DNA from: an uncultured Solimonas sp.
Lineage (GTDB): Bacteria > Pseudomonadota > Gammaproteobacteria > Nevskiales > Nevskiaceae
Length of the DNA stretch: 56,664 nucleotides
NCBI GenBank assembly: GCA_946478985.1
Contig: CAMLDZ010000007.1
Span: 1 to 56,664, forward strand
Reading direction: 5' to 3'
In this document: positions 14,911 to 53,177 of the stretch, one piece after another
Layout: every line of letters starts with the position of its first letter
How positions within the stretch are numbered: position 1 is the stretch's first letter
Position numbers and translations under genes: made by a program
The notes under the pieces: generated by a model
Seen by the model: the letters and a program-made list of their open reading frames with translations, nothing else
Database searches by the model: none
Told to the model about the DNA's origin: nothing

Positions 14911-15456
14911 TCAACGACCGTAGAGCGCGGTGATCCGTGCGCTGCCCAGGGCATGCGCGTGAATCATGAAGCCGGCCAGTGCCGGGGTGGCGTTGGGCGG
15001 CAGCTCCAGCACGGTGTCGAGTGCATAGACGGTGAAGTGGTAGCGGTGCGGCTTGTCGCCCGGCGGCGGGCAGGCGCCGCCGAAGCCGGGCGTGCCGAAG
15101 TCGGTGCCGAGCTGGCGGCTGCCCTCGGGCAGTCTCTTGCCGTCGGCGCTGCCGGCGCCGGCCGGCAGGCCGCGCGCCTCGGCCGGCAGGTTGACCACCA
15201 CCCAGTGCCACCAGCCGCTGCCGGTCGGTGCGTCCGGATCGTAGACCGTCAGCGCGTAGCTCTTGGTGCCGGCCGGGCCGGCGGTCCAGCTCAGCGCCGG
15301 CGAGCGGTTGCCACCGCTGCAGCCGAAGCCGGCGTAGACCTGCGCCTCGGCGAGCGGCTTCTGCTCGGCGATCTCGGTGCTGCTCAGCCTGAAGTCGGCG
15401 GCCAGCGCGGCGAACGAGCAGCCCAGCAGTGCGGCGGCGAAAGCGGTCTTGAACAT
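14911..15456 (-). CDS. YbhB/YbcL family PEBP-like protein, exported
   Basis: A 181-residue phosphatidylethanolamine-binding-protein homologue of the bacterial YbhB/YbcL type. A signal peptide ends near residue 20 (FAALA-AD). Core motifs are NRSPALSWTAGPAGT, the anion-binding YDPDAPTGSGWWHWVVVNLP, and the C-terminal PHRYHFTVYALD. The ligand and role are not established for the family. AGGAG lies eight bases before the ATG. It is alone on its strand between priA and an AraC-type regulator. Confidence 0.93.
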   Translation of the reverse strand: MFKTAFAAALLGCSFAALAADFRLSSTEIAEQKPLAEAQVYAGFGCSGGNRSPALSWTAGPAGTKSYALTVYDPDAPTGSGWWHWVVVNLPAEARGLPAGAGSADGKRLPEGSRQLGTDFGTPGFGGACPPPGDKPHRYHFTVYALDTVLELPPNATPALAGFMIHAHALGSARITALYGR

Positions 15457-16374: not shown

Positions 16375-17114
16375 GGGCCGCGGCGGACCTCGCCGTCATC
16401 GCGCAGGCTGAACGGCGTGAAGCGCGTCTGCGTGTCGTAGACATCGACGCCCTCGGCGCGCTTGAGCAGGCCGACCACCTTGTAGGTCACCGGCGTCAGC
16501 ACGATCTCGACGCAGACCTTGAAGACGAAGTTGAACAGCACCGCGCCGATCATCGCCTGCGTGGTCCACAGCCCGCCGAAAGCGATCGGATAGAACAGCG
16601 CGGAGTCGGCGAACTGGCCGCAGATGGTCGAGCCGATCGTGCGCATCCACAAGTGCCGGCCCTGCGTCCACACCTTCATCCGCGCCATCACGTAGGAGTT
16701 GAGGAAGTCGCCGACCCAGTAGGCGACCATACTGCCGAGGACGATGCGCCAGGTGTTGCCGAACGCCACTTCCAGCGCCGGCTGCAGCTTGAGGTTGTAC
16801 GGGTCCTGCGCCACCGGCATCGCCAGCACCGCGTAGGTCATGAAGGTGGCGAACAGCATCGCCGCGAAGCCGGCCCAGATCGCGCGGCGCGCGCGGGCGT
16901 AGCCATACACCTCGGTCAGCACGTCGCCGAAGATATAGCCGATCGGGAAGAACAGATTGCCGGCCGAGAACACGAACGTGCCGAAGTACGGCAGGTCCAG
17001 TTCACAGAGCTTGCCGGGGCCGATCAGGTTGGAGCACAGCAGAACGGCGACCGTGCCGCCAAGCAGGAAGTCGTAATAGCGGAAGCCGGTCGAGGCCGGC
17101 GCGGCGACGGACAT
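16371..17114 (-). CDS. yhhQ: Queuosine-precursor transporter (YhhQ/VUT family)
   Basis: A 247-residue inner-membrane protein with about six helices. Recognisable segments are the N-terminal LLGGTVAVLLCSNLIGPGK, the FPIGYIFGDVLTEVYGYARAR loop and the late STICGQFADSALFY. YhhQ proteins import queuosine precursors (preQ0/preQ1) for tRNA modification; older names are VUT or DUF165. I use the ATG at 17114, just before the first conserved segment, not the longer frame to 17177. It is followed without a gap by the AraC regulator. Confidence 0.9.
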   Translation of the reverse strand: MSVAAPASTGFRYYDFLLGGTVAVLLCSNLIGPGKLCELDLPYFGTFVFSAGNLFFPIGYIFGDVLTEVYGYARARRAIWAGFAAMLFATFMTYAVLAMPVAQDPYNLKLQPALEVAFGNTWRIVLGSMVAYWVGDFLNSYVMARMKVWTQGRHLWMRTIGSTICGQFADSALFYPIAFGGLWTTQAMIGAVLFNFVFKVCVEIVLTPVTYKVVGLLKRAEGVDVYDTQTRFTPFSLRDDGEVRRGP

Positions 17115-17189
17115 GGGCGGGCGTGGACTGGAGTGGACGCGGTGCGCCGCAGCATACGCCAAGGCGCCCGCCTTCATCCGCCGCCGTCT

Positions 17190-18872
17190 TCAGTGCCGCG
17201 CCAGCAGCAGGCTCTCGGCGATGGCCTCGCGGTCCCAGGCTGCCGCCTGCGGCAGCCGCAGGCGCAGGTCGCCGGCTTCCGGGCGGCGCAGCCATGGGGC
17301 CTGTTCGAGGCGCTCGACCAAGGCCGGGATATCGCTGCGCGGTTCGATGCGCTCGTTCCACAGTGCCAGCAGCTGGCGCACCGCCGCTTCGCGCTGCGCC
17401 GGGCGGTCCGGCGTCGCCAGCGTCAGCGGCAGCGTCGGCGTGACCAGGATGATCAGCGACTCCTGCCGCCGCGCGTCGACGCTGCGCTGCGTGAACCAGT
17501 TGAGCACCGGCACCTCGCCGGCCACCGGCACCCTGGAGACGGTCTTGTCGGACACCTGTTCCGACAGCGCGCTGAGCACCAGCGTCTGGCCGAACTCGAT
17601 ATCGGCGGTCGCCGACACCGACTGGCGGAACGTGGTCAGCGAGGCCGGGAAGCTGCCGATCTGGTCCTGCGACAGGAATGAGCGCGCAGCGTCGACGCGG
17701 AACGTCACCTTGTTCTGGCTGATCGCCTCCGGAATCACCTTGAGCTGGACGCCGACGTCGATCGGCTGCAGCTGGCCGAGGTTGATACCGCTGACCGCGA
17801 CGCTGAGCGTGCGGCCGGCAAAGAACTGCGACTCGCGGCCGAGGTGGGCGGTGATCGACGGCCGCGCGACGACGCTGTAGTACTGGCCGGAGTCGTTGAA
17901 CAGGTTGAGGCTGTAGTCGAGCTGCGGCGTCGAGATCTGCGAGGTGATGGTGCGCGAGGTCTCGCGGCCGATGCCGCTGATGCTCTGCTGCGCCAGCGTG
18001 TTGCTGTAGCCGTACAGCACGCGCAGGCCGTCGAACAGGTTGATGCCGCGGCTGGCGCGGTCGAGCACCGAGTTGAGCAGGATCGTTACCTCGACGACGA
18101 CCTGATTCAGCGGATTTTCCGCCGCGGCCGGCGCCTGATCGCGGCCGCGTGTCTCGGCCTCGCCCAGCGGCGTCTGCCGCTGCGCCGGCGTCACGTCCAG
18201 ATACTCGTTGACGCGCTGCTGCGCATGGCGGGCCTCGGCGGCATTGCTGCCATCCAGCGCCAGCTGGCGGAGCAGATCGCGCGCCGCCGGGCGGCCCTCG
18301 GCGGCCAGCGCAAAGGCCTGCAGACGGATCACGTCGGCCTGTTCGGGTGCCAGCTCGCGGCTACGCTGAGCCGCCAGCTGCAGCATCGGCAGATCCTGCT
18401 GGTAGTACGAGGCGACGCCGAGTCCGTAGAACGCTTCCCAGCGTCGCGGCTGGTCGAGCGCGGCCTCGGCGAAGCGTGCCTGCGCCTGGCGGTGATCGCC
18501 GCGCTCCAGTTCCAGGAAGCCCAGCCGCAGCAGGGCCCAGTAGTGGCCGGGTGCGAAGCGCTCGGCATTGGCGTAGCCGACGGCGGCGAGGTCGAGCCGC
18601 GCGCGGTCGCGCTCGCGGCCGATCTGCTCCTCCGTCAGCGCATGCAGGAACTGCAGGGGGCCGTTGCGCAGATCCTGCTGCAGCAGCCGCGCCAGCGGCG
18701 CCTGCGCGGCGTCCCAGCGGCCGGCGTGCAGGGCCTGTTCGGCGAGCGACCAGTCGGATTCGGCGGAGCCGGTGCGGCTGCCGCTGCTGGCGCAGCCGCC
18801 GAGCGCGGCGCTCAGGGTCAGCGCCACGCTCAGCGCCGGCAGCCGGGCGCGCAGCAAGGTTTTGGCAAGCAT
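17190..18872 (-). CDS. TPR-containing secretin-like lipoprotein
   Basis: A 560-residue outer-membrane candidate. The lipobox is LGGC (Cys27). Residues about 40-220 are helical TPR-like repeats (for example WEAFYGLGVASYYQQDLP). From about 250 follows a secretin region: VVEVTILLNSVLDRASRG, then GVQLKVIPEAISQNKVTFRV, SVSATADIEFGQTLVLSAL and the terminal VPVAGEVPVLNWFTQRS with ESLIILVTP. Secretins form large outer-membrane channels in type II/III secretion and pilus systems. Here no ATPase, platform protein or pilin gene is in the window, so it is an orphan. AAGGA precedes the ATG. It is last in a three-gene run beside the kinase gene. Confidence 0.82.
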   Translation of the reverse strand: MLAKTLLRARLPALSVALTLSAALGGCASSGSRTGSAESDWSLAEQALHAGRWDAAQAPLARLLQQDLRNGPLQFLHALTEEQIGRERDRARLDLAAVGYANAERFAPGHYWALLRLGFLELERGDHRQAQARFAEAALDQPRRWEAFYGLGVASYYQQDLPMLQLAAQRSRELAPEQADVIRLQAFALAAEGRPAARDLLRQLALDGSNAAEARHAQQRVNEYLDVTPAQRQTPLGEAETRGRDQAPAAAENPLNQVVVEVTILLNSVLDRASRGINLFDGLRVLYGYSNTLAQQSISGIGRETSRTITSQISTPQLDYSLNLFNDSGQYYSVVARPSITAHLGRESQFFAGRTLSVAVSGINLGQLQPIDVGVQLKVIPEAISQNKVTFRVDAARSFLSQDQIGSFPASLTTFRQSVSATADIEFGQTLVLSALSEQVSDKTVSRVPVAGEVPVLNWFTQRSVDARRQESLIILVTPTLPLTLATPDRPAQREAAVRQLLALWNERIEPRSDIPALVERLEQAPWLRRPEAGDLRLRLPQAAAWDREAIAESLLLARH

Positions 18873-18953
18873 GGTGAAAGTCCTTGTCGGGCTCCGGCGC
18901 GGCCGGAACGCAAATGGCTTGGATGGGGGGCGGGTCTGGGAGAGGCCGGGTCG

Positions 18954-19424
18954 CTACTGGCAGCGCAGCTTGTTGACGCCTTGCGGATCGCGTTCGGCCA
19001 GCGCGCTGGCGGCGCGTGAGCAGCACCAGCGCTCGTCGCCGGCGGCGAGCACCGTGCCGGACGGCGCGCAGTAGGCGTTGAAATCGACGCCGCCGCTGCG
19101 CGGGTTCATCCGTCGCAGCCAGTACAGGCCCTGCGCGGTACGGTGCTGCGCTTTCTGCCACTCGTAGGCGCACTGCGCCGGCTGCTCGGGCGGCTGCCCG
19201 CAGCCACGGCCCTGTGGCGACTGCAGACAGCAGGTGTCGTGCTCGATGCTGCCGGCATGCACCACGCATTCCAGCTCGGTGCCGATCGCGCGGCAGTACG
19301 CCGCGCCGCCGGTAGCCGCCGTGCTGCAACCCGCGGCCAGCGCGCCGAAGCAGGCTGGCGCGGCGGCCGCCGCGCTGCAGGCCAGCAGCAGCGCGGCGGT
19401 GAGAGCGTGGACGAAGAAGGGCAT
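18954..19424 (-). CDS. Cysteine-rich exported protein, unknown
   Basis: A 156-residue protein with a signal peptide (cleavage near AAAAAPA, residue 23) and 12 cysteines in the mature chain, including two CC pairs (TCC and WCC). An even number of cysteines in an exported protein suggests disulfides. The C-terminal half has a conserved-looking FNAYCAPSGTVLAAGDERWCC. I do not recognise the family. It lies 28 bases downstream of the disordered secreted protein and 81 bases upstream of the secretin gene, all on the minus strand, so one operon is likely. Confidence 0.78.
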   Translation of the reverse strand: MPFFVHALTAALLLACSAAAAAPACFGALAAGCSTAATGGAAYCRAIGTELECVVHAGSIEHDTCCLQSPQGRGCGQPPEQPAQCAYEWQKAQHRTAQGLYWLRRMNPRSGGVDFNAYCAPSGTVLAAGDERWCCSRAASALAERDPQGVNKLRCQ

Positions 19425-19452
19425 CGACAGTCGGCCGGTGCGGTGGCGGGGA

Positions 19453-20829
19453 CTATTTGCCGCTGGAGGTGGTCGTGCTGCCGTCGTCCTCATCCTCGTC
19501 ATCGTCGGAGCTGCTGGCCGGGGCCTGCAGCGGCGGCCGCGAGGGACCTCTGTTGAGAGCGTCCTCGGCGCGGTTCTGCTCGGGACCGGTGGTGGTGTTG
19601 AAGGTGGCGTCGCGGCCCGGGTCGATCGCACCCATGTTCTTGTTGTTGAAGCCGGAGGTGCCGCTGCCACCGCCACTGTCGTTGAGACCCTGCGTCGGCT
19701 GCCCGAACAGGCCCTGGCCGACCTGGCTGGTGGTCGGCAGCGGCGCACTGCGGTCGATCGCGCTGTTGTCGTTGCGGTCCGGATTGATGTTGCCGCCGGT
19801 CTTGGCGGCCTGGATGATCTGGAAGTTGGGATCGTTGAGGCGGCGCTGCAGATCCTCGTTGGTCGGCCGGCCGCGGCCTTCCGGATCGGGGCGGCCGGCG
19901 TCGGCCTTTTCGACCGGCGTCGCCGTACCGTCCGGCGCCACGGTGCCGACCTTCTTGCCGTCGACGTAGACATGCTTGGTGCCGTCCTTGTCGGTGACCA
20001 CGGTGTTGCGGCCGTCCGACGAGGTCTTGGTGGTGCAGTCGGTGCAACCGCCACCTTCGCCGCCGGTCGCCGGGGCCGCGCCACCGCCAGCGGCACCGCC
20101 GCCGCCGGCATCCTCGCCGCGCGAGATGCGATCGAGCTCCTCGAAGCGGCCGCCGGTGACGGTGTTCATCACGCCTTTCTCATTGATGCCCAGCTCTTTG
20201 GCGAGCTGGCCCTTGCCGGTGGTCTTGACCTCGCCGTTCTCGAAGCGGGCGTTGGGCGTGGTGATGCCGGAGCCGGAACCGGGGCTGGAGATCATGTCGG
20301 TGGTCTTGCTGGTCGGCGTGCCGGCCTGTGAAGCGGCGGCGGCGCCGAGCGGGCCGCCGACGACCTGGCCGCCGGTCAGGCCGCCATTGATCGGGTTGCG
20401 GTTGCTGTCGCGCACGCGGTCGGCCTGCTCCTGCGTGATCTCTGGCTTGGCGCCGAAACCCTGGTCGAAGCCCGGTTTGGCGGTGCGTGAGGTGTCGGCG
20501 CCGAGCGTCGGCGCTGCGCCGCGCAGGCCGGTGGTGGCGCTGTCGAGCGCCTGGTCCTTGTCGGGCTTGGCACTGCTGATCGGTTGGCGCTCGATGCCCG
20601 GCAGCGTGCTGGCCGGTCCGCCGGGCGGCGGTGTTTCGGCGCGCTTGTCGTCGGTGCGGCCGGCCACCGGCGGCTGCACCTGCACGGTGGCGCTGGTCGG
20701 CACGCGCACGGTCTTGTTGGTGACGGCGGCTTTCTTGCTCTGGTCCTTGAGATCGGCGGCGCCGGCCGGCGCGGCCAGGCCAAGGCCGGCGGCGAGGACT
20801 GCGGGTATACACAGGTGCTTGATGTTCAC
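19453..20829 (-). CDS. Disordered exported protein, unknown
   Basis: A 458-residue protein with a signal peptide (to about residue 24, APAGA-AD) and a low-complexity mature chain rich in Gly, Pro, Asp, Asn and Thr. Near residue 255 is a Gly-rich run followed by CTDC, then an ordered-looking piece (VVTDKDGTKHVYVDGKKVGT). The end is an acidic tract (SSSDDDEDEDDG) and a Ser/Thr tail. The start is GTG at 20829, with GGAG nine bases before it; the longer frame upstream is antisense to the kinase gene and false. First gene of the run that ends in the secretin; divergent from the kinase. Confidence 0.78.
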   Translation of the reverse strand: MNIKHLCIPAVLAAGLGLAAPAGAADLKDQSKKAAVTNKTVRVPTSATVQVQPPVAGRTDDKRAETPPPGGPASTLPGIERQPISSAKPDKDQALDSATTGLRGAAPTLGADTSRTAKPGFDQGFGAKPEITQEQADRVRDSNRNPINGGLTGGQVVGGPLGAAAASQAGTPTSKTTDMISSPGSGSGITTPNARFENGEVKTTGKGQLAKELGINEKGVMNTVTGGRFEELDRISRGEDAGGGGAAGGGAAPATGGEGGGCTDCTTKTSSDGRNTVVTDKDGTKHVYVDGKKVGTVAPDGTATPVEKADAGRPDPEGRGRPTNEDLQRRLNDPNFQIIQAAKTGGNINPDRNDNSAIDRSAPLPTTSQVGQGLFGQPTQGLNDSGGGSGTSGFNNKNMGAIDPGRDATFNTTTGPEQNRAEDALNRGPSRPPLQAPASSSDDDEDEDDGSTTTSSGK

Positions 20830-21006
20830 GGGCGGACTCCGGTGTGGCGGAAGGTGACGCCACCCTGCGCCGCCAGCTGCCGCCGAGTCCGGACCGAATT
20901 CCGACGATTTCCCGACGATTGTGATTCGCGGCGGAAAAACCGCCGGCGCCGGCGTTCCGAGCCGCCCGCCTCGTCTATCCTCGCCGCCCTGGGGGAAGCA
21001 CCGACC
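20830..21006. promoter_or_regulatory. Divergent control region with 11-bp-spaced repeats
   Basis: This 177-base region must hold the promoters for both the secretin run (left) and the kinase gene (right). It contains two exact copies of CCGACGATT, at 20901-20909 and 20912-20920, one helical turn apart, with a related CCGAATT just before. A dyad CGGCGG-AAAAA-CCGCCG follows at 20929-20945. Tandem direct repeats spaced 10-11 bp are the usual target layout of OmpR-type winged helices, and the adjacent kinase protein starts with such a domain. The pairing is inference. Confidence 0.5.
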
Positions 21007-23709
21007 GTGAACGAGCCGCGCAGTCACACCGATGCCGTCGAGCCGCGCGCCCGCGCGCCGCGCTGGCGTTTCGGCGACTGCGTGCTCGACGGCGCGACGC
21101 TGGAGCTGCGCGTCGGCGGCCAGCTGGTCAAGCTGGAACCCAAGCCGCTCGACCTGCTGATGTTCCTGCTGCGCCATCCGGGCGAGGTGGTCACCAAGGA
21201 CGAGCTGCAGGACGGCGTCTGGCCGGGCCGCGTGCTGTCGGAGTCGGTGCTGACCAAGGCGGTCGCCAAGCTGCGCCAGGGCCTTGGCGACGAGCAGCAG
21301 GCCATCATCAAGACCGTGCACGGCTACGGCTACCGGCTGATCGCGCCGGTGACGCTGGAGGCGGCCGAGCCCGGCGCGCCACTGGCGCCGCTGCCGCTGC
21401 AGCCCGGCGACAGCCCGCCGCTGCGGCCGCTGTGGACCCTGCAGGCGCGGCTCGGCAGCGGCGGTTACGGCGAGGTCTGGCTGGCCGCGCACGCCAAGAC
21501 CCATGAGCGCCGTGTCTTCAAGTTCGCCCGCGACGCCGTCGGCCTGACCGCGCTCAAGCGCGAGATCACCCTGTTCCGCGTGCTCACCGACACCTACGGA
21601 CCGCGCCGCGACGTCGTTGCCCTGCTCGACTGGAATCTCGAAGAACTGCCGTATTTCGTCGAGGCCGAGCACGTCGCCGGCGGCGCGTTGCCGCAGTGGG
21701 CGCAGGCGCAGGGCGGCGTCGCCGCGCTGCCGCTGGCGACGCGGCTGGAGCTGGTCGCGCAGGCCGCCGAGGCGCTGTCGGCCGCGCACGCCGCCGGCGT
21801 GCTGCACAAGGACATCAAGCCGGCCAACCTGCTGGTCGCCAGCGGCGCCGACGGTGCGCCGCAGCTCAAGCTGGCCGATTTCGGCAGCGGCCGCATGCTC
21901 GATCTGGCGCGGCTGGAGCACCTGGAGATCACGCGGATCGGCTTCACGCAGGCGCTCGACGGCAGCGGTGACGACGGCGGCACGCCGCTGTATCTGGCGC
22001 CGGAGCTGCTGGCCGGCCAGCAGCCGACCGCGCAGTCCGATCTCTACGCGCTGGGCGTGATCCTCTACCAGCTGGTCGTCGCCGACCTGCGCCGGCCGGT
22101 CGCGCCGGGCTGGGAGCGCGAGATCGACGACGAATTGCTGCGCGAGGACATCGGCCTGGCCGCTGCCGGCAATCCGGCGGATCGCCTGGGCGATGCCGCC
22201 GAGCTGGCGCGGCGCCTGCGCACGCTGGACTCGCGGCGCTCGCGTCTGCAGGTGCAGCGACAGGCGCAGGCCGAGGCCAAGCGGCTGCGCGCCGCGCTGC
22301 AGCGCAGCCGTATCCGCCGCCGCTGGCAGCAGGCACTGGTGGCGACGCTGCTGGTCGGCCTGGGCCTGAGCAGCTGGGGCTTCTGGAGCGCGCGCCGCGC
22401 CGCCGACGAGGCCCGCGCCGCGGTGGAGTTCGTCAGCGAGGACCTGCTGGCGGCGACCGATCCTTTCGGCGGCGGCCGGCCGACGCTGAGCCTGCAGGCG
22501 CTGCTCAACGAGGCCGCACCGCGGCTGGACCAGCGGCTGGCCGCGCATCCGCTGGCGCGCGCCGAGATGGCTTACGCGATGGGCCGCGCCTACGAAGGTC
22601 TGGGCGACTGGACGCAGGCGCGCGCGCAGCTGGAGGCGGCGCTGCGCGACAGCGAGGCCGAAAAGGGCGCCGATGCCGAACTGAGCCTGCGCATCGCCGA
22701 CCGCCTGGCTCACGTGGCGATGCTGCAGACGCGCTACGACGAATCGGCGGCGATCTACCAGCGCAGCTACGCGCTGCGCCGTGCGCGGCTCGGCGAGCGG
22801 CATCCGGACACGCTGACCACGCGCGCCGGCCTGGCCTGGCTGGACTTCGAGCAAGGCCGCTACGCGCAGGCCGCCGCGCTCTATGAGGTCTTGCTCAAGG
22901 ACTATCGCGGGTCCGATCCGGACGGTGTCGTCGATACGCAGTGGAGCCTGGCCGACTGCTACCTGGAGCTGAACCGCGCTGCCGATGCGGAAGCGCTGAT
23001 GCGCCAGGTCGTGGCTGCGTCGGTAGCGCGGCGTGGCGCCAGGCATCCGCACACCCTGTGGCAGCAGATCACCCTCGGTGACACGGTGATGACGCAAGCC
23101 CGCTGGGACGAGGCGGCAGCGATCTTCGACGATGCCTACCAGCAGCTGTTGCACGGCGTCGGCGAGCTGCACCCGTACACGCTGACCGCGCTGCATTATC
23201 GCGGCCAGCTGCTGCTGGAGCGCGGCGAGGCGGTGGCGGCGCTGCCGCTGCTGCGCCGCGCCTACGACAACCGCATGCAGGTGCACGGTGCCGGCCACGT
23301 GTGGACGCGCTATTCGGCCAATCGCGTCGGCGAAACCCTGACCCGGCTCGGCCTCGCCGCCGAGGCGCTGCCGCTGCTGCAGGCCACCTACGAGCAGGGC
23401 CTGGCGGCGCAGGGCGCACGCCATCCCAATGTGCTGCTGATCCAGCGCAACCTGGCCGAGGCGCTGATCGCGCAGGGCCAGCTGGCGCGCGCCGAGACCC
23501 TGCTGCTGCAGGGCCTCGACGACGCCGGCCGCAGCCTGCCGGCCGGCAATGTGCGGATCGCCTACCTGCACGAGAGCCTGGGCCGGCTGCGCGCGCTGCA
23601 GCGTCGCCCTGACGAGGCGCAACGCGAGTACGCGCGGGCCGGCATGCTGTACCGCGCTGCTCTGGGCGAGGCGCATCCGCTGACGCAGCGCCTGCTGGCG
23701 CTGCGCTGA
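21007..23709 (+). CDS. Winged-helix / Ser-Thr kinase / TPR membrane protein
   Basis: A 900-residue fusion. Residues 20-114 are an OmpR/ToxR-type winged helix ending in HGYGYRLIAP. Residues about 145-415 are a protein kinase with Gly-rich loop LGSGGYGEVWLA, candidate Lys172 in VFKFAR, catalytic loop HKDIKPANLL (Asp269), DFG (Asp291) and GTPLYLAPE, so it looks active. One membrane helix spans about 443-461, and the rest is TPR-like repeats, presumably periplasmic. This puts DNA binding and kinase inside and a repeat sensor outside. The start is GTG at 21007 after GGGGGAAG. Divergent from the secretin run. Confidence 0.9.
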   Translation: MNEPRSHTDAVEPRARAPRWRFGDCVLDGATLELRVGGQLVKLEPKPLDLLMFLLRHPGEVVTKDELQDGVWPGRVLSESVLTKAVAKLRQGLGDEQQAIIKTVHGYGYRLIAPVTLEAAEPGAPLAPLPLQPGDSPPLRPLWTLQARLGSGGYGEVWLAAHAKTHERRVFKFARDAVGLTALKREITLFRVLTDTYGPRRDVVALLDWNLEELPYFVEAEHVAGGALPQWAQAQGGVAALPLATRLELVAQAAEALSAAHAAGVLHKDIKPANLLVASGADGAPQLKLADFGSGRMLDLARLEHLEITRIGFTQALDGSGDDGGTPLYLAPELLAGQQPTAQSDLYALGVILYQLVVADLRRPVAPGWEREIDDELLREDIGLAAAGNPADRLGDAAELARRLRTLDSRRSRLQVQRQAQAEAKRLRAALQRSRIRRRWQQALVATLLVGLGLSSWGFWSARRAADEARAAVEFVSEDLLAATDPFGGGRPTLSLQALLNEAAPRLDQRLAAHPLARAEMAYAMGRAYEGLGDWTQARAQLEAALRDSEAEKGADAELSLRIADRLAHVAMLQTRYDESAAIYQRSYALRRARLGERHPDTLTTRAGLAWLDFEQGRYAQAAALYEVLLKDYRGSDPDGVVDTQWSLADCYLELNRAADAEALMRQVVAASVARRGARHPHTLWQQITLGDTVMTQARWDEAAAIFDDAYQQLLHGVGELHPYTLTALHYRGQLLLERGEAVAALPLLRRAYDNRMQVHGAGHVWTRYSANRVGETLTRLGLAAEALPLLQATYEQGLAAQGARHPNVLLIQRNLAEALIAQGQLARAETLLLQGLDDAGRSLPAGNVRIAYLHESLGRLRALQRRPDEAQREYARAGMLYRAALGEAHPLTQRLLALR

Positions 23710-27331: not shown

Positions 27332-27676
27332 TCAGTTGGGGCGGCGGATGATCTTCGGATCGATCAGCACGCTGTCGCCCGTCTTCATGTTGCGGATCTT
27401 CAGGTCGACATCGTACGAGCCGGGCAGCAGTGCCGGCAGCACGAGTGCGCTGAGGAAAGGGCCGCCCGGCAGGCCCAGGGTCAGCGGCAGGCTGGCGCCT
27501 TCGCCCTTGGTCTTGAGGAACAGCTCGAACACCCAGCCGCTGATGTCGTCGCCGCTGCCGGCGGGTACCAGCTCATAGACGATCAGGTCCAGCGCCCGGG
27601 CGTCGGAGACGATGGCATCCGGGTCCGGGCAAATGCCCAGGCTATTGATCGGGACGTTGGTTGAGATGATGGCCAT
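27332..27676 (-). CDS. Small protein overlapping the TIR gene, unknown
   Basis: A 114-residue protein with no signal peptide or clear membrane helix. It reads as mostly beta strand, with a hydrophobic centre (FLSALVLPALLPGSYDVDL) and a basic C-terminus. I do not recognise it. It starts inside the 3' end of the TIR gene in another frame (35-base overlap), with AGGAG eight bases before the ATG, so its translation is tied to that gene. The pairing suggests a partner, substrate or immunity-like protein for the TIR protein; that is inference. Confidence 0.75.
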   Translation of the reverse strand: MAIISTNVPINSLGICPDPDAIVSDARALDLIVYELVPAGSGDDISGWVFELFLKTKGEGASLPLTLGLPGGPFLSALVLPALLPGSYDVDLKIRNMKTGDSVLIDPKIIRRPN

Positions 27677-29795
27677 TGGTGCGGCTCCTGGTCGATTCAC
27701 TTGGAAGGGGCTGCGGACAGCCCTCCGTGGCACGGTCCAGACCGTGGCGCTTCAGGAATCGCAGCAGGCGCTGCTGTGGCAATCCGCAGGCATCCAGCCT
27801 AGGGGCCAAGCCGGCCGCCGTCTGTGAGCCAGCCCTCAGTACGTCCCAACGCTGCTGCGCCAGGTCGGCGCTGGCGGGCGCCTGTCGCCGCAGGGCATCC
27901 ATCCACACCGCCCAGTCCGCGTCCGGCTTTTCATCCGCTGCCAGTTCGAGGCGCAGCAACTGGTGGTCGACTCGCACTTCCAGATCGGCGACGGCGGCCG
28001 GCTTGAACGCCCGTGCTGAATCTGCCCGCGCGGCGAGCGTCCGCGCCGCCTGTGCGGGCTCGCCCAGCTGCAGCTGCAGTTCGGCAAGCTGGTTGACTGC
28101 GCGCAACTGCTGCCGCAGCCAGAGGGTCTGGCCGGGATCGGACTGCTGGATGGCGTCCGCCTGCTCCAGCGAGAGCCGCGCTTCCTGCAGGGCTTGCGGC
28201 CATTGCTGTCGCAGCTCGTAGCCGAGCGCGCGCCACTCGTGGGCCTGCTGCAGCGCCGCGCGCCAGTCGAGATTGGCCGGATCGTGGGCCACCAGCGCCG
28301 TGGCCAGCTGTAGCGCCTCGTCGCTGCGCGCCGCGTAGCCCTGCAGATCGCCGCTGCGCGTCTGCAACGACAACAGCAGCAGCAAGGGTTGCAGATACTG
28401 GTAGCGCAGGGTCTGATCTTTCGGCTGCTGCAGCATCAGCGAGCGCAGCACCGCACCCTGTTCGAGCAGCAGCGCCTGCGCCGCGACATGCTGGCCGCGC
28501 TGCTCCTGCACCGCAGCCAGCCAGGACAGCGAGGTCGCGTAGTCGGTCTGGTAGCTGCTGCTGTCGGGGAAGCGCTGCGCCAGCGTCGCGGCGATCGCCT
28601 GCGCCGCCTGGAAGTGTCCGAGCGCCGTGTCCAGCTCGCCACGCGCCTCCGCCAGCGTGCCGAGATTGGACTCGCCGTAGGCCAGCTCCTGCAACCACTG
28701 CGGCCGCTCCGGCTGCAACTCCAGCAGGCGCTGCGCGCTGTCGCGGTAGGCGCGGAACTGCGTCTGCGCGGTGGTGAAATCGTTCTGCAGCCAGGCGGCG
28801 TAGCCGGACCAGTACTCGGCCTGTCCGCGTTCGAACAGGGCCTGCGGGTCCTGCGGTGCGCGCCGCGCCAGATCCTGCGCCAGGCTCAGCGCGGCGGCGA
28901 ACGACGGCGCAGCATCGGCCAGCCGGCCCTGCTGCACGCGGATTTCGCCGATCTGCCGCAGGGCCCTGGCGCGCGCCGCCAGCGTGGCATCGCCCGAGGT
29001 GCCGGCAGACTCGCTGGCGAAGTACTGCATGGCTTTTTCGCCGACGGCGTCGAGCACGTCGAGGCGGCCCACCGGTTCGAGTCGGGCGCGCAGGTCGCCG
29101 AGCATGAAGCCGATCAGATCCTCGGCCTGCTGGCGGCTGTGCTCGGCGGCCGCGCGTGCGAAGTAGGCGGCCACCGCCAGCGATACCGTCACCACCGAGG
29201 TGATCGTGGCGACACCGGCAAGCAGCGCCAGGCGCCGGTTGCGGGCGAGCAGATCGCGGCGGCGCAATTCGTCGTAGCCGACGCCGACCAGGCCGGCGAT
29301 CAGCTTGAGCCGCGCGCGCTCGCGGCCGTCGCCCTGCGCGCGCGCGTCGGCGGCGATCGGTTCGGACGGCGTGCCGTCCAGGCGCTGCAGCAGCGCCGAT
29401 GCGAAGCACTCCCGCGCGTCGCCGCGAAGCGGTTCGCCGTCGACGATGAAGCAGCGCACGCGGTCCTCGCGGCCCAGCGACTTGAAGTAGCGGATCTCCT
29501 CGTTGACCCAGTGCGATCGCGCCGAATGCGGCGAGCAGATCACCACCAGATAGCGCGAAGCCCGCAGTGCGCGTTCGACCTCGACGCCGAGTTCCGAGGA
29601 GCTGGCCAGTTCGTCGCGGTCGCGGAATACCGGAAACAGCCGGCGCGGCAGCGGACCGTCGCGCGTCTGCCGGCCGACCAGGGCCTGCGGCAGGCGATAG
29701 CCTTCGAGACGGCGCAGCAGCCATTCCGCCCAGCGGCGGTCGCGGTGGCTGTAGCTGATGAAGGCCCAGTATTTCAGCGGATCGCTGTCAGACAC
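27642..29795 (-). CDS. TIR-domain / TPR membrane protein
   Basis: A 717-residue protein. Residues 8-125 are a TIR domain: AFISYSHRD, LFPVFRDRDELASSS, then YLVVICSPHSARSHWVNEE. The W-x-x-E motif (Trp96-Glu99) includes the Glu that is catalytic in TIR NADases. A membrane helix spans about 189-211. The following FMLGDLRARLEPVGRLDVLD and TPR-like repeats presumably face the periplasm. The start is GTG at 29795 after GGGGAGG, right at the TIR domain. Such TIR-TM-TPR proteins are known in proteobacteria without a settled role. It overlaps the next small gene. Confidence 0.88.
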   Translation of the reverse strand: MSDSDPLKYWAFISYSHRDRRWAEWLLRRLEGYRLPQALVGRQTRDGPLPRRLFPVFRDRDELASSSELGVEVERALRASRYLVVICSPHSARSHWVNEEIRYFKSLGREDRVRCFIVDGEPLRGDARECFASALLQRLDGTPSEPIAADARAQGDGRERARLKLIAGLVGVGYDELRRRDLLARNRRLALLAGVATITSVVTVSLAVAAYFARAAAEHSRQQAEDLIGFMLGDLRARLEPVGRLDVLDAVGEKAMQYFASESAGTSGDATLAARARALRQIGEIRVQQGRLADAAPSFAAALSLAQDLARRAPQDPQALFERGQAEYWSGYAAWLQNDFTTAQTQFRAYRDSAQRLLELQPERPQWLQELAYGESNLGTLAEARGELDTALGHFQAAQAIAATLAQRFPDSSSYQTDYATSLSWLAAVQEQRGQHVAAQALLLEQGAVLRSLMLQQPKDQTLRYQYLQPLLLLLSLQTRSGDLQGYAARSDEALQLATALVAHDPANLDWRAALQQAHEWRALGYELRQQWPQALQEARLSLEQADAIQQSDPGQTLWLRQQLRAVNQLAELQLQLGEPAQAARTLAARADSARAFKPAAVADLEVRVDHQLLRLELAADEKPDADWAVWMDALRRQAPASADLAQQRWDVLRAGSQTAAGLAPRLDACGLPQQRLLRFLKRHGLDRATEGCPQPLPSESTRSRTNGHHLNQRPDQ

Positions 29796-29889
29796 GACGC
29801 CTCCCCTGGCGTCCTTATCGAGGGCGAGCCCCGATCCGGCGGAACATAGTCGAGCCTCGCGGCCGCGGCAACGCGTGCGGCGCAAAGCA

Positions 29890-33944: not shown

Positions 33945-36900
33945 ATGGTAGACGCAGGCAAGGGTGCGGCGCAGGATGAATCCATGAACACGCTCGATGC
34001 CGGCGCGCCGGCGACGGACACGGCGCTGCCCTTGCAGGACGGCGCGGCGGCGATCGCCCGGGCCAAGTACTTTCTGCCGGGGGAGGACCTGGCCGGCATG
34101 CGCCGCCGGCTGGCCCGTGCGCTGGCGGCGCCGGAGGCCGATCCGGGCCGCTGGGAAGCGCGCTTCCTGCGCGTGCTCGATCACGCGTTTCCGGCCGGCC
34201 GCATCATGGCCAACGCCGGCGCCGAGGCGCACAAGCCGCGTGTTTCGACCATCAACTGCACGGTATCGCGGACTCTCGGCGATTCGATGGCCGACATCAT
34301 GCAGGCGGCATCCGAGGCGGCGCTGACGCTGAAGGCCGGCTGCGGCATCGGCTATGACTTCAGCACGCTGCGGCCACGCGGCGCGCCGGTGTCCGGCGCC
34401 GGCGCGACCACGTCCGGCCCGCTGCCGTTCATGGATGTGTTCGACGCGGTTTGCCGCACCGTCTCCAGCGCCGGCGGTCGCCGCGGCGCGCAGATGGGCT
34501 GCATCGAGATCAGCCATCCGGACATCGAGGACTTCATCACCGCCAAGCGCGAGGCCGGGCGCCTGCGCAACTTCAACCTGTCGTGCCTGGTCACGCGCGA
34601 TTTCCTCGAGGCCGTGCGCAGCGATGCGCAATGGCCGCTGGTGTTCCCGGCCTTCCCGCAGGAAATCGCCAGCTTACCGACGCTGTGGCGCCACTGGCCG
34701 GCGGCCGATCCGCTGCACACCGTTGACGAGCACGGCCGGACCTGCTGCCGCATCTACCGCCGCGTCCGCGCGCGTGCGCTGTGGGATCTGGTGATGCGCT
34801 CGACGTACTCGCACTCCGATCCGGGATTCATCCTGATCGACGAATGCAATCGCATGAACCCCCTGTGGTTCGCCGAGGACATCCGTGCGACCAACCCCTG
34901 TGTGACCGGCGATACGCGGCTGGCGACGCAGCACGGCCTGATTCCGATCGCCGAATTGCAGCAACGCGGCCTTGCTATCGACGCAACAGTGGATCGGCGC
35001 GCGCTCGGTGACACCCGCGGAGGCGTGTCGGTGCGGCCGGCCAGACCGGCTTTCATGACGGCAGCACGGGCGCGGGTTTATCGCGTCGTCACCGCCCACG
35101 GATACGAGATCAAGGCGACGGCCTGGCATGACTTCTATACCGAGCGCGGCAAGCTGAAACTGCGGGATCTGTGCATTGGCGATCGCGTGCTCGTGCAGTC
35201 CGGCAAGGGGCAGTTCGGTGTGGAAGGCTCGGAAGATCTCGGTCAGCTGCTGGGCCTGCTGACCGGCGACGGTCATTTCACGAACCGCGGCGACGACAAA
35301 GAAGCGGCCGTCATCAATCTCTGGGGTGAGGAGCGTGCACTGGCGCAACGCACGACTGCCTACGTCAACACCTTGATCGCCGGCGCGGCGCTGCATGGTG
35401 CCCGCGAGTACAGCGTTTCCGCGGTTGCCGTGCCTGACCGCCAGTTGGTGCTGATCCGCTCGATCGTACTGGCGCGGCTGCTCGAGCACTACGGGTTCAA
35501 CCGCGCGACCAAGCTGCGCGTGCCCGAGGTGGTCTGGCGCGGAAGTGAAGTCTGCGTGCGCGCTTACCTTCAGGCGCTGTTCCAGACCGACGGCACCGTC
35601 AACGTCTCGGAGCGCAGCCAGAGCTGTTCGATCCGGCTGGCGTCGAGCAAGCCTGACCTGCTGCAGGAGGTGCAGCGCCTGCTCGCCAACTTCGGCATTT
35701 TCTGCAGCGTTCGCGCCCGTCGCGCGGCTCGGATCAAAGCCATGCCGGATGGCCGGGATGGGCAACGCGACTACGTCTGCCGGGCCGATCACGAGCTGAT
35801 CATCGACGGCGAATCGCGCGAACGTTTCATGTGTGAGATCGGCTTTCTGTTACCGGCCAAGACGCAGCGCTATGAAGCCTGGGTCCGTGACAAGCGCTTG
35901 CTCAAAACCCAGCGCTTCTCGTCGCCGATCGTTCGCATCGAGCCGCTTGGCGAAGAACCGGTTTTCGACACGACGCAGCCCGATCACAACACGGTGATCT
36001 TCAACGGTCTGGTCACCGGGCAATGTGGCGAGCAACCATTGCCGCCGTATGGCGCCTGCCTGCTCGGCTCGATCAATCTCGCCAGCTTCGTGCAGGCGCC
36101 GTTCACCGCCAGGGCGCGCTTCGATTTCGCGGGCTACGAGGCGGTGATCGGCGACTTTGCGCGCATGCTCGACAACGTCTGCGAGCTCAGCGGCCTGCCG
36201 CTGGCCGAGCAGCGTGCCGAGATCCTGCGCAAGCGGCGGCACGGCATGGGCTACTTCGGACTCGGTTCGGCGCTGGTGATGCTGGGCGTGGCTTACGGTT
36301 CGAGCGAGTCGATCGACTTCACTGCCGAGGTCAGCAAGCGACTGGCGCTGGGCAACTGGCGCGCGGCGCTGGCCCTGGCGCGCGAGAAGGGCCCGGCACC
36401 GCTGCTGGCCGAGTCCGTCGAGCTGACGCCGGCACATCTGCTGCGCTGTCCGGATCTGGTCCGCGACGGCTATCAGGCCGGCAACAAGTTGCCGGCGCGG
36501 CTGCTGCATGCGCGCTATTCGACTTACATGCAGCGCATCGCCACGCTGGACGCCTCGCTGGTCGAAGCGCTGGGCGACATCGGCGCGCGCTACACGCACG
36601 CCACCTCGATCGCGCCGACCGGAACGATGGCCGCCTCGGTCGGCAACAACGCCAGCAACGGCATCGAACCCTCGTTCGCGCATCGCTACATCCGCAACAT
36701 GATCGTGCCCGGCGAGAAGGCCAAGCGCGCAGTGGCGATGGAGTCCTACGAGCTGTTGCGCTACCGGCAGGAAGTCGACGCCGCTGCCGACGCCGACGCC
36801 CTGCCGGCCCTCTTCGGCGCCGCCTCGGCGATTGCGCCGCGTGCGCATATCGACGTGCAGGCGGCCGCGCAGTACTGGATCGACGCGTCGATCTCCAAGA

Positions 36901-37187
36901 CCGTCAACGTGCCGACCGACATCGACTTCAGCGAATTCCAGCAGCTCTACCTCTACGCCGCCGAGCGCGGCCTCAAGGGCTGCACGACGTTCCGCTTCAA
37001 TCCTGAGGTCCATCAGGGCGTGCTCGTGCAGCAGGCCGATCTGGCCGGCACGCTGTACCGGTTCACACTTGCCGACGGCAGCACGGTACAGCTGGCCGGC
37101 GATGCCGAGGTCGAGTACGAGGGCGGCCGCTATACCGCCGCCAATCTCTATGACGCCCTCAAGGAAGGCTTTTACGGGAGGCTGTGA
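33945..37187 (+). CDS. nrdJ: B12-dependent ribonucleotide reductase, alpha part, with intein
   Basis: A 1080-residue precursor; the mature enzyme is about 705 residues after loss of a 375-residue intein (319-693). It reduces ribonucleotides using adenosylcobalamin and needs no oxygen. The first redox cysteine is in STINCTVSR. The radical cysteine of NPCGEQPL is the first residue after the intein (694), and the second redox cysteine is in GACLLGSINL. This is the NrdJa half; NrdJb follows. The ATG at 33945 has GGGAGAG before it; ATG 33984 is an alternative with AGGAT. Confidence 0.94.
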   Translation: MVDAGKGAAQDESMNTLDAGAPATDTALPLQDGAAAIARAKYFLPGEDLAGMRRRLARALAAPEADPGRWEARFLRVLDHAFPAGRIMANAGAEAHKPRVSTINCTVSRTLGDSMADIMQAASEAALTLKAGCGIGYDFSTLRPRGAPVSGAGATTSGPLPFMDVFDAVCRTVSSAGGRRGAQMGCIEISHPDIEDFITAKREAGRLRNFNLSCLVTRDFLEAVRSDAQWPLVFPAFPQEIASLPTLWRHWPAADPLHTVDEHGRTCCRIYRRVRARALWDLVMRSTYSHSDPGFILIDECNRMNPLWFAEDIRATNPCVTGDTRLATQHGLIPIAELQQRGLAIDATVDRRALGDTRGGVSVRPARPAFMTAARARVYRVVTAHGYEIKATAWHDFYTERGKLKLRDLCIGDRVLVQSGKGQFGVEGSEDLGQLLGLLTGDGHFTNRGDDKEAAVINLWGEERALAQRTTAYVNTLIAGAALHGAREYSVSAVAVPDRQLVLIRSIVLARLLEHYGFNRATKLRVPEVVWRGSEVCVRAYLQALFQTDGTVNVSERSQSCSIRLASSKPDLLQEVQRLLANFGIFCSVRARRAARIKAMPDGRDGQRDYVCRADHELIIDGESRERFMCEIGFLLPAKTQRYEAWVRDKRLLKTQRFSSPIVRIEPLGEEPVFDTTQPDHNTVIFNGLVTGQCGEQPLPPYGACLLGSINLASFVQAPFTARARFDFAGYEAVIGDFARMLDNVCELSGLPLAEQRAEILRKRRHGMGYFGLGSALVMLGVAYGSSESIDFTAEVSKRLALGNWRAALALAREKGPAPLLAESVELTPAHLLRCPDLVRDGYQAGNKLPARLLHARYSTYMQRIATLDASLVEALGDIGARYTHATSIAPTGTMAASVGNNASNGIEPSFAHRYIRNMIVPGEKAKRAVAMESYELLRYRQEVDAAADADALPALFGAASAIAPRAHIDVQAAAQYWIDASISKTVNVPTDIDFSEFQQLYLYAAERGLKGCTTFRFNPEVHQGVLVQQADLAGTLYRFTLADGSTVQLAGDAEVEYEGGRYTAANLYDALKEGFYGRL
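34899..36023 (+). mobile_element. LAGLIDADG intein within nrdJa
   Basis: In-frame insert of 375 codons between Pro and the catalytic Cys of NPCGEQ. Block A is CVTGDTRLAT, block B has the TxxH motif in ATAWHDFYT. Two LAGLIDADG-like motifs, LLGLLTGDG (residues 435-443) and LQALFQTDG (541-550 region), mark a homing endonuclease with both acidic residues kept. Block F is PVFDTTQPDHNTVIFNG and the end is VTGQ before Cys, so the last intein residue is Gln, not Asn. The inserted gene shows no frameshift. Confidence 0.93.
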
Positions 37188-52400: not shown

Positions 52401-53047
52401 GCGCCGGGCAGCAGCGGCCGGTAGACCGGCATGAAGATCAGCATGCCGCGCCGCGCCGGTTGATGGCTGGCGTGCAGCAGCGTGACCGGCCCGCTCATCC
52501 GCACCTGGCCGCTGTCGCGCGCGGCGATCATCGCCGCCTGGCGCCCCGGGCTGGACGCCATGTCGTAACCGAAGGCCACTTCGGTCAGCTCATTGAGCGG
52601 TTCGATATAGGTGACCGCCGAGTAGCTGTCGCGTATCCCGGGCGGCCAGACGTGGAAGGCGCCCAGGCCCTGCCGGCGCTGCTCGGTCTCGTACTCGCCG
52701 ATCTCGGTGGCGCGCAACTGGCGGAGAAAGCCGAGGCCGAGGACGCCGGGGTAGTGTTGTGCCAGCTGCAGGGTATCGAAGTAGGCGCGCCACTCCTCAC
52801 GCGTCACCGTCTGGGAGGCCTCGAACAGGCCGCCGGCGCCGCGCAGGATCTGTTCATGCGCGCGCAGCCGCTCGGCGAGCGTTACCTCGGCGCGGCTGAT
52901 CGCCTCGCGAAAGCGAGCCTCGCGGATCGAGCTCTGATTCTGGTCGACGATGCGCATCGCCAGTGTCGACAGGCCGACACCCAGGACGATGACGCCCAGC
53001 AGCCGCAGGCGCGTGCCATACCGACCCTGAGTCCACCGAAACGGCAT
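49457..53047 (-). CDS. CHASE-PAS-GGDEF-EAL cyclic-di-GMP enzyme
   Basis: A 1196-residue membrane sensor. A helix at about 13-32 leads to a periplasmic CHASE domain (about 60-280) and a second helix near 305-325. Three PAS domains follow (about 355-480, 490-610 and 615-740), then a GGDEF domain (RMGGDEF, with inhibitory-site RSSD five residues before) and an EAL domain with MEALIRW, DDFGVGYSSL and EGVET. Both catalytic motifs look intact, so it may make or degrade c-di-GMP. I use ATG 53047; the longer frame starts with TTG at 53077. Confidence 0.93.
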   Translation of the reverse strand: MPFRWTQGRYGTRLRLLGVIVLGVGLSTLAMRIVDQNQSSIREARFREAISRAEVTLAERLRAHEQILRGAGGLFEASQTVTREEWRAYFDTLQLAQHYPGVLGLGFLRQLRATEIGEYETEQRRQGLGAFHVWPPGIRDSYSAVTYIEPLNELTEVAFGYDMASSPGRQAAMIAARDSGQVRMSGPVTLLHASHQPARRGMLIFMPVYRPLLPGAGVGARRDALVGYVYSASVAEELLVGLLGGGTGDISLRVDDISDAAPAALYVSGAIGGTVSDHDEPPLQATRELSIYGRRWRLQFHATPQFGADPMPWSQLVLAGGLMITLLLFAVVRAQRRATRRAHQLAHDMSQAYRDAEARQRAVVDSSAEGILTIDMRGIVLSFNRAAERMFGVGADEVLGRNVAMLMPERFRARHDGYVAEFSPREHGRIVGLRREVTGLRRDGREFPMSLAINVIDGDGPRRFVGVIADISESKAIERALRESEERSRRTIEGVADYAIFMLDADGRVSTWNTGATRIIGYSGDEIIGRHFSVFYPPADRAQRPDDLQRARDEGQRRDEGWRQRKDGSLFWAHSLLTAVRDEHGKLIGYSKIIRDLTEIHHVQAQLAEANSLRQSIVESAAFSIIATDIHGRIRSINPAAERLLWYRHEDLIDKVGILQLHDRGELAERAAALSQELDERIEPGLRVLTAKAERGLTDEHEWSYVRRDGSRVPVQLAMTALHDAQGQISGYLGIAYDIVERKRHEAYIQHIAHHDALTGLPNRVLLQDRLHQAILRARRDSRLVAVLMLDLDHFKRINDTLGHHVGDRLLLSAAERLKNALRSSDSVARMGGDEFVVLLPDLQQAAEASEMAQKLLHELATPLVVGSHDLQITASIGISVCPEDGIDGTTLLKNADTAMYQAKAAGRACHRRFSEEMLHAASRKLELEGAMRRALTQNEFRMHYEPQISLATGAVVGMEALIRWSHPQRGEITPGDFIPVAEESGLIVPIGEWTLHTACREAREIQQRLGLPLSVSVNLSPRQFAQPNLVEQVSAACQASGLDPRHLVLELTEGTLMHKSDDAIAMLKRLRAMGISIAIDDFGVGYSSLAYITRFPIDQLKIDRSFVRDICTDAADAAIAQAIIAMAHGLNIRVVAEGVETQAQLDDLRRRACDGAQGYLFGSGGSADAFVVQGFHFSQAVAARDFPARARCATR

Positions 53048-53177
53048 CGACCGAACACCCCGAGCACCCGGCAGCAAGGCCTGCCGGGCCGCTATCGTCG
53101 GTCGTTTCCCGAGCAGCGGCTATCGGTATGGCGAGGCTTTCAGGCGAGCGTCATCAGCGGGCCGACCGGCGGTCGGC

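What the first reader, a model, noticed from the sequence alone, without database searches (positions are those of the whole stretch)
17190..23709. Winged-helix/kinase/TPR protein divergent from an orphan TPR-secretin and two unknown exported proteins
Seen: one polypeptide joins an OmpR-type DNA-binding domain, an apparently active Ser/Thr kinase, a membrane helix and TPR repeats. It is divergent from a run encoding a disordered exported protein, a 12-cysteine exported protein and a lipoprotein with TPR plus secretin domains. Known: secretins normally work with an ATPase, a platform protein and pseudopilins, none of which is here. Inference: a self-contained envelope sensing and export unit in which the kinase protein controls, and perhaps senses through its outer repeats, a secretin channel whose substrate may be one of the two exported proteins.
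Basis: partly seen in the sequence, partly recalled or inferred. Interest (0 to 1): 0.75.

Follow-up and report, generated by a model that had tools for sequence, protein, structure and literature searches.

The report
Kinase-controlled outer-membrane secretin gene locus
A bacterium carries a small gene set in which a membrane protein that is at once a DNA-binding switch and a kinase sits opposite genes for an unusual outer-membrane channel and two exported proteins; related bacteria keep the switch and its likely DNA target site but have a different outer sensing part where the exported genes differ.

Summary
All four genes are real. SEC is a lipoprotein with TPRs and a secretin core but no recognisable N-domains, like a TadD-type pilotin and a secretin in one chain. 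The 12-cysteine protein (CYS) was found in 9 of 555 genomes searched, all nine among the 24 with SEC, in two cases on another contig. That fits a client or partner of SEC.

The divergent promoter carries three 11-bp direct repeats (GTCGGRAAWYS), the form expected for an OmpR-type DNA-binding domain. The same repeats occur at six related SEC loci, and in SEC-less genomes at the best kinase homologue and at a nearby lipoprotein-like gene. The kinase's wHTH and kinase half is one clade over 14 such loci, while its periplasmic TPR half has another history: one version in 6 of 6 loci with CYS, others in 8 of 8 without.

Best reading: a membrane-bound, DNA-binding receptor kinase with an exchangeable sensor controls its own promoter and a self-piloted secretin operon. 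That SEC exports CYS, and does so without a type II or pilus motor, is inferred.

The parts
17190..18872 (-). SEC: lipoprotein with TPRs and a secretin core, 560 aa
   Evidence: Pfam Secretin E 3.5e-19; 125 matches among 7993 scored; model
18180..18767 (-). SEC TPR domain (residues 36-231)
   Evidence: AlphaFold2 model; fold like MamA, PilW, PilF, TadD and other TPR proteins
17433..18107 (-). SEC secretin beta domain (residues 256-480)
18954..19424 (-). CYS: exported protein with 12 cysteines in the mature part
   Evidence: family alignment A3
19453..20829 (-). DIS: exported low-complexity, probably disordered protein, 458 aa, GTG start
   Evidence: 6 database matches, the first being the same protein; homologues beside SEC
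20883..20920 (-). Operator: three 11-bp-period direct repeats GTCGGGAAATC / GTCGGAATTCG / GTCCGGA in the divergent promoter
   Evidence: shared block; exact pattern 20901-20916; leave-one-out matrix 52.1 bits; best non-overlapping window site 4.6
21007..23709 (+). KIN: OmpR-type wHTH, Ser/Thr kinase, TM helix, TPR repeats, 900 aa, GTG start
21118..21339 (+). KIN winged-helix DNA-binding domain (residues 38-111)
   Evidence: Trans_reg_C E 9.6e-16
21439..22083 (+). KIN protein kinase domain (residues 145-359)
   Evidence: Pkinase E 2.7e-25; catalytic residues
22333..22389 (+). KIN predicted membrane helix (about residues 443-461)
   Evidence: hydropathy only
22519..23676 (+). KIN TPR part (about residues 505-890), periplasmic if the helix spans the membrane; differs between loci

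Best explanation
The locus is an autoregulated surface/export module. Shown by sequence: KIN has an OmpR-type DNA-binding domain and a kinase with its catalytic residues, then one predicted membrane helix, then TPRs; three 11-bp direct repeats lie between KIN and the divergent operon. Inferred with good support: KIN binds these repeats and controls both its own gene and the operon (DIS-CYS-SEC), its kinase relaying a signal read by the periplasmic TPRs; this outer part is what differs when the controlled cassette differs. Inferred with moderate support: SEC reaches the outer membrane by its own lipid anchor and its own TPR domain (pilotin and secretin in one chain), forms a ring without the N-domains that normally dock to an inner-membrane motor, and is the outer-membrane exit or assembly platform for CYS and probably DIS, which cross the inner membrane by the Sec pathway. 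What drives the outer-membrane step is unknown.
For: Synteny: KIN divergent from the SEC operon in L001-L005 and L007. Operator: a 38-bp block shared by the window and six other loci. A pattern made from these seven sites, run on 58 genomes, gave 17 places in 14 genomes (reversed-pattern control: 4 places in 3 genomes). Six are the SEC loci that made the pattern; of the other 11, 5 lie just upstream of the best KIN homologue of a SEC-less genome, 3 upstream of a lipoprotein-like gene 6-9 kb from KIN, and 3 look like chance. At 20 KIN paralogues from other places the best upstream score is 24.9 bits, against 37.6-52.7 at six SEC loci. Module exchange: residues 20-360 of the 14 KINs at such loci are one clade (SH-aLRT 95); for residues 500-895 this is rejected (AU p 0.0026); TPR identity to the window is 60-67% in five other loci with CYS, 21-25% in eight without. 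CYS in 9 of 555 genomes, all within the 24 with SEC; in G475 and G011 on another contig and not in the search profile. No secretin N-domain family (STN, Secretin_N, BON) among the 9 Pfam families that matched any of 51 SEC relatives at E 0.001. TPR fold comparable to PilW/PilF/TadD; TadD is the TPR pilotin of RcpA (PMC10499894, abstract and two sections read).
Against: No experiment. Other TPR proteins (MamA, OGT, designed repeats) score as high as or higher than PilW/TadD in the fold comparison, so pilotin kinship is not shown. SEC occurs without CYS in 15 of 24 genomes. L007, L050 and L051 have SEC without CYS; L050 and L051 lack KIN. The site upstream of the SEC operon in G050 scores only 17.7 bits (60 shuffles: maximum 12.4), and 4 of 20 paralogues score 15.9-24.9 with variant repeats, so it is weak evidence; in G037 the KIN gene itself has no site. 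The full-length KIN tree does not join the 14 KINs, and the periplasmic-half tree has long branches. The CYS-TPR correlation rests on few independent events; the discriminating case is one locus, L007. The shared chromosomal neighbourhood was seen in 10 of 14 KIN loci only. No sigma-70-like promoter match in 17100-21100. All 19 SEC genomes examined have other secretins and ATPases that could serve it.
Confidence: 0.6

Rival explanations
1. SEC is an auxiliary outer-membrane exit of the Tad/Flp pilus or another standard type IV filament machine encoded elsewhere; the local exported proteins are pilus-associated factors.
For: All 19 genomes examined have further secretins and T2SSE-type ATPases. 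The five Asticcacaulis genomes with SEC have a second secretin near an ATPase of 221-223 bits. RcpA-TadD is a structural parallel (PMC10499894).
Against: No N-domain family match in 51 relatives. No ATPase, platform or pilin gene was noticed beside SEC in the loci read by eye. Many of the 58 genomes of the G001 family show secretins of CpaC size but only 8 have SEC.
Confidence: 0.2
2. SEC is not an export channel for CYS/DIS; it is an outer-membrane anchor or pore, and CYS and DIS form a surface or periplasmic matrix with it. KIN regulates a surface-coat cassette whose members vary.
For: In SEC-less genomes the KIN-operator unit faces, in 6 of 7 loci, a protein with DUF5122 propeller, Big_9 and outer-membrane-barrel matches, and 4 of 7 loci have a lipoprotein-like gene, with no SEC. 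A relative of that lipoprotein-like gene also sits beside SEC in L001 and L050.
Against: CYS was found only in SEC genomes, in three families and also unlinked, as expected of a client of SEC; a structural partner would look the same.
Confidence: 0.25
3. The divergent pairing is a neutral neighbourhood (a fixed place between pntAB and the queuosine-precursor transporter gene) and KIN does not control SEC.
For: pntB and/or the transporter gene lie near KIN in both SEC and SEC-less genomes (10 of 14 KIN loci).
Against: A conserved 11-bp direct-repeat operator lies in the promoter and recurs at the best KIN homologue of SEC-less genomes.
Confidence: 0.07

Closest known systems
Tad secretin-pilotin pair RcpA-TadD (P. 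aeruginosa)
   Same: A lipid-anchored TPR protein and a short secretin; TadD has five TPRs and SEC's model has a comparable TPR array.
   Different: Here both are one polypeptide, the VirB9-like N-domain described for RcpA has no counterpart in the model, and no Tad genes were seen in the locus.
HxcQ liposecretin (P. aeruginosa type II system)
   Same: A secretin that is itself a lipoprotein and reaches the outer membrane without a pilotin (seen as passages and a reference title; the original was not read).
   Different: HxcQ belongs to a complete type II system (recalled); SEC has TPRs instead of N-domains and no local motor.
GspD / PilQ / SctC secretins
   Same: Pfam Secretin domain and weak family matches.
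   Different: NCBIfam scores far below the cut-offs (45 against 351 bits for GspD); no N-domain match.
CadC/ToxR-type membrane-bound one-component regulators
   Same: N-terminal OmpR-type wHTH, one membrane helix, periplasmic sensor part (family traits recalled); CadC model E 1.9e-14 to the wHTH.
   Different: A kinase domain lies between wHTH and membrane, and the sensor is a TPR array.
Bacterial eukaryote-like Ser/Thr receptor kinases (PknB type)
   Same: Cytoplasmic kinase, one TM helix, extracytoplasmic sensor (recalled); PknB_PASTA E 5.2e-23 over the kinase.
   Different: Carries its own DNA-binding domain; TPRs instead of PASTA.

Membership tests
Type II secretion secretin GspD | N0-N3 periplasmic domains before the secretin core | tested here: not met
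   51 of 51 relatives match Secretin; none of the 9 matching families is an N-domain family at E 0.001; model goes from TPR via linker 232-255 to the beta region
Type II secretion secretin GspD | Score over the GspD equivalog cut-off | tested here: not met
   45.1 against 351.35 bits
Type II secretion secretin GspD | Encoded with ATPase, platform and pseudopilins | tested here: not met
   None among 37 window ORFs scanned; neighbourhoods of other loci read by eye only
Secretin superfamily (PF00263) | Secretin domain over the gathering score | tested here: met
   69.4 against 27.5 bits
Liposecretin (HxcQ-like, by mode of targeting) | N-terminal lipobox | tested here: met
   Lipobox LGGC27 read in the sequence; lipidation itself not tested
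Liposecretin (HxcQ-like, by mode of targeting) | Reaches the outer membrane without a separate pilotin | not testable with these tools
   needs fractionation
Tad secretin-pilotin pair | TadD/PilF-like TPR domain | tested here: inconclusive
Tad secretin-pilotin pair | Tad genes in the locus | tested here: not met
   none among the 37 window ORFs scanned
Hanks-type Ser/Thr kinase | VAIK-type lysine, HxD aspartate, DFG aspartate | tested here: met
   K172, HKD 267-269, DFG 291-293
OmpR/PhoB-type wHTH regulators | Trans_reg_C domain | tested here: met
   58.1 against 26.2 bits
OmpR/PhoB-type wHTH regulators | Direct-repeat operator, about 11-bp period (recalled for PhoB) | tested here: met
   repeats present; binding itself not tested
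Anti-phage kinases (PADLOC: MAD6, PD-T4-6, Stk2) | Match beyond the kinase domain | tested here: inconclusive
   The top matches (MAD6, PD-T4-6) cover the kinase domain; C3a189 and MkoA reach into the TPR part at weaker E-values; SEC, CYS, DIS have no match

The most novel reading that the evidence does not exclude
A dedicated outer-membrane export route made of one protein: a self-piloted TPR-secretin that needs no type II, type III or pilus motor, with cysteine-rich clients encoded beside it or elsewhere, switched on by a receptor that is kinase, DNA-binding transcription factor and periplasmic TPR sensor in one chain, whose sensor half is exchanged by recombination together with the cargo cassette while the wHTH and operator stay fixed.
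Probability: 0.28. Interest if true: 0.87.

Novelty: new variant of a known kind. Interest (0 to 1): 0.7.

Why it matters
Secretins are thought of as the outer half of motor-driven machines. A lipoprotein secretin without docking domains, found in two classes of Proteobacteria and followed by a cysteine-rich client, would show that the pore can be used on its own or be re-used. The kinase is a single-chain receptor joining kinase, DNA binding and an outer TPR sensor; a predicted operator makes its regulon directly testable, and the difference of the sensor with the cargo gives a natural experiment on what such receptors sense.

Tried and rejected

Gene calls in loci come from my own GC-frame script, which sometimes picks wrong frames or starts; regulators and other genes named from these lists were recognised by eye. 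'Ig-like' and 'lipoprotein-like' for that gene are by eye: the L050 copy has no Pfam match at E 0.1. DIS in L003 was recognised by eye. The operator matrix contains the sites it scores, except in the leave-one-out run for the window and for L050, L081 and the paralogues.

Full report
What is there. Four genes at 17190-23709: KIN (21007-23709, +), and on the other strand DIS (19453-20829), CYS (18954-19424) and SEC (17190-18872). KIN has an OmpR-type wHTH (38-111), a protein kinase (145-359) with its catalytic residues, a hydrophobic stretch near 442-462 and TPRs in the C-terminal part. SEC is a lipoprotein with a TPR array and a secretin domain. CYS and DIS have signal peptides (by eye) and match no Pfam or NCBIfam family; CYS has 12 cysteines after the signal peptide.

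SEC as a family. 125 proteins matched SEC at E 0.001 among the 7993 scored; names given by sources include Hydrocarboniphaga, Stagnimonas, Sinimarinibacterium, Solimonas and, more distantly, Sphingomonadaceae. A scan of genome contigs gave 19 loci: seven similar to the window's (L001-L007; one is titled Arenimonas) and twelve with alphaproteobacterial titles (L008-L019). With a profile, SEC is strong (728-905 bits; the next best match of any kind is 63) in 8 of 58 genomes of the family of G001, present at E 1e-50 in 3 of 298 of the family of G013 and in 13 of 199 of the family of G012. Of 51 aligned relatives, 51 match Pfam Secretin; the other eight matching families are all TPR families. The model places the secretin beta region directly after the TPRs and a short linker. 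Foldseek finds GspD, InvG, PilQ, RcpA and phage pIV for the beta part; VIA-align finds PilW, PilF and TadD, among many other TPR proteins that score as high, for the TPR part. In the Tad system TadD is a TPR lipoprotein that the secretin RcpA needs (PMC10499894: abstract, Discussion and the TadD section read); HxcQ is a lipoprotein secretin targeted without a pilotin (passages in PMC4311626 and PMC3542185). SEC looks like both ideas in one chain. This is an analogy, not a membership claim.

The exported partners. CYS lies next to SEC in L001-L005, twice in L001, L002 and L004; two of twelve alphaproteobacterial loci, L012 and L013, have a CYS relative near SEC. A CYS profile (A3, which contains rows from L001-L005, L012 and L013) found CYS in 5 of 58, 1 of 298 and 3 of 199 genomes. 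All nine also have SEC. The two that were not in the profile, G475 and G011, carry CYS on another contig than SEC, among genes that look unrelated; in G011, as in L013, CYS follows another domain in the same ORF (by eye). By my arithmetic two such hits would both fall in SEC genomes by chance about 3 times in 1000. I take this as evidence that CYS works with SEC. DIS has few relatives: 6 matches, the first being the same protein. Its C-terminal part recurs beside SEC in L004, L007 and L051, and a longer match lies beyond KIN in L005. Other exported genes fill the same place elsewhere: a 142-aa protein, a 168-aa protein, a lipoprotein-like gene (L001, L050), and in L050 a small repeat protein with a weak match to DUF2345, E 3.4e-4, below its cut-off.

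The regulator. KIN belongs to a large family: 37 of 58 genomes have matches at E 1e-100 or better, often several. The best five (62-70% identity) are those beside SEC and CYS. The promoter between KIN and the exported genes contains a block shared by the window and six other loci, near AATsGTCGGgAAAtsGTCGGaAwTCGGTCmGGA, three units with an 11-bp period. Lag-11 self-similarity reaches the threshold in 7 of 7 of these promoters against 0-2 of 7 for each other lag from 7 to 16. A strict pattern run on 58 genomes gave 17 places in 14 genomes against 4 places in 3 genomes for the reversed pattern. Besides the six SEC loci, it lies upstream of the best KIN homologue in G028, G030, G036, G043 and G056 (about 150-460 bp from the match start) and upstream of the lipoprotein-like gene in G028, G037 and G043, 6-9 kb from the KIN gene; three places (G005:C18, G041, G049) look like chance. 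G035, missed by the strict pattern, has both sites by the matrix (locus L081). In G037 the KIN gene itself has no site. None of twenty paralogues from elsewhere reaches the range of these loci (30.4-52.7 where a site is present), but four of them score 15.9-24.9 bits with variant repeats. The putative recognition helix (placed by eye) reads S/TESVLTK in all 14 KINs at these loci; most paralogues differ (TEASLTK, TDNVVAR and others), though a few (L103, L108, L116, L120) are close. In G050 the regulator keeps the wHTH (45% identical over residues 15-221) but continues into response-regulator-like sequence with a histidine-kinase-like gene next to it (by eye), and a degenerate site (17.7 bits; 60 shuffles, maximum 12.4) lies upstream of its SEC operon. 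As some paralogues score alike, I count this as weak.

A place with exchangeable parts. NAD(P) transhydrogenase genes and/or the queuosine-precursor transporter gene lie near KIN in 10 of 14 KIN loci (window, L001-L003, L005, L072-L076); they were not found in the held stretches of L004, L007, L077 and L081. In 6 of 7 SEC-less loci KIN faces a protein whose L073 copy has DUF5122 propeller, Big_9 and outer-membrane-barrel matches; 4 of 7 have the lipoprotein-like gene. Over residues 20-360 the 14 KINs form one clade (SH-aLRT 95); over residues 500-895 this is rejected (AU p 0.0026, with long branches in play), and the six KINs of CYS loci group with seven of the paralogues. Identity to the window KIN over the TPR part is 60-67% in L001-L005 but 21-25% in L007 and the seven SEC-less loci, although the wHTH of L005 (65%) is further from the window's than theirs (73-83%). 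So the periplasmic half has been exchanged, or evolved apart, while DNA-binding domain, kinase and operator stayed. The TPR type goes with presence of CYS in 14 of 14 loci; L007, with SEC but without CYS, is the one case that separates the two.

Does SEC need a motor? Each of 19 SEC genomes has 2-6 secretin matches, SEC included, and T2SSE-type ATPases. In G011, G012, G014, G015 and G016 the best ATPase match is 221-223 bits, about 3-4 kb from a second secretin on the same contig; the other 14 genomes have matches of 425 bits or more. The five have no GspE/PilB-strength match, so SEC does not generally depend on a type II or type IVa system; a Tad-type motor remains possible.

Regulators elsewhere. 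Reading ORF lists by eye, alphaproteobacterial SEC loci often have two-component genes nearby (L008, L011, L013, L099, L100; one such ORF in L010) or another HTH regulator just upstream (L012, L014, L016, L098); in L017 and L018 regulators lie a few kb away, in L019 I saw none, and L009 and L015 were not judged. So SEC often comes with signalling genes of changing type.

Verdict. The export role is likely but inferred. Independence from all motors is open. I found no description of this locus in the listings named under Tried and rejected.

Noticed in passing
33945-37187 (+): Ribonucleotide reductase (Ribonuc_red_lgC) with a LAGLIDADG_3 match at residues 537-633 inside it: probably an intein.
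   Followed up: no
27934-29724 (-): Lies in an ORF (27642-29885) with a TIR-like stretch (YWAFISYSHRDR, by eye); similar ORFs occur near KIN in L073-L075 and L081. No Pfam match at 1e-5 for the part given and no PADLOC match.
   Followed up: partly
15092-15192: ARAGORN reports overlapping tRNA-Ala (-) and tRNA-Gly (+) inside a phosphatidylethanolamine-binding-protein gene (14914-15456, -); at least one is probably spurious.
   Followed up: no
19453-23676 (-): A 1407-aa open frame runs antisense through most of the kinase gene into DIS; my own GC-frame gene finder chose it over the kinase.
   Followed up: yes
L101-L120, upstream of KIN paralogues: Several paralogues have variant 11-bp-period repeats (for example L105 and L109) at a similar place, hinting that the family autoregulates with paralogue-specific operators; not significant in the lag test (7 of 20 against 5 of 20 for lag 12).
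   Followed up: partly
L050 13838-16668: KIN-like wHTH with sequence resembling the kinase N-lobe, fused to response-regulator-like sequence, next to a histidine-kinase-like gene: a possible natural exchange of signalling type.
   Followed up: partly
L050 10580-11017 and L012 14013-14441: Small exported repeat proteins near SEC, similar by eye; the first has a weak match to DUF2345 (recalled as a VgrG tail domain), E 3.4e-4, below cut-off.
   Followed up: partly
49460-54191 (-): Two neighbouring c-di-GMP genes (CHASE-PAS-GGDEF-EAL, 1206 aa, and PAS-GGDEF).
   Followed up: no
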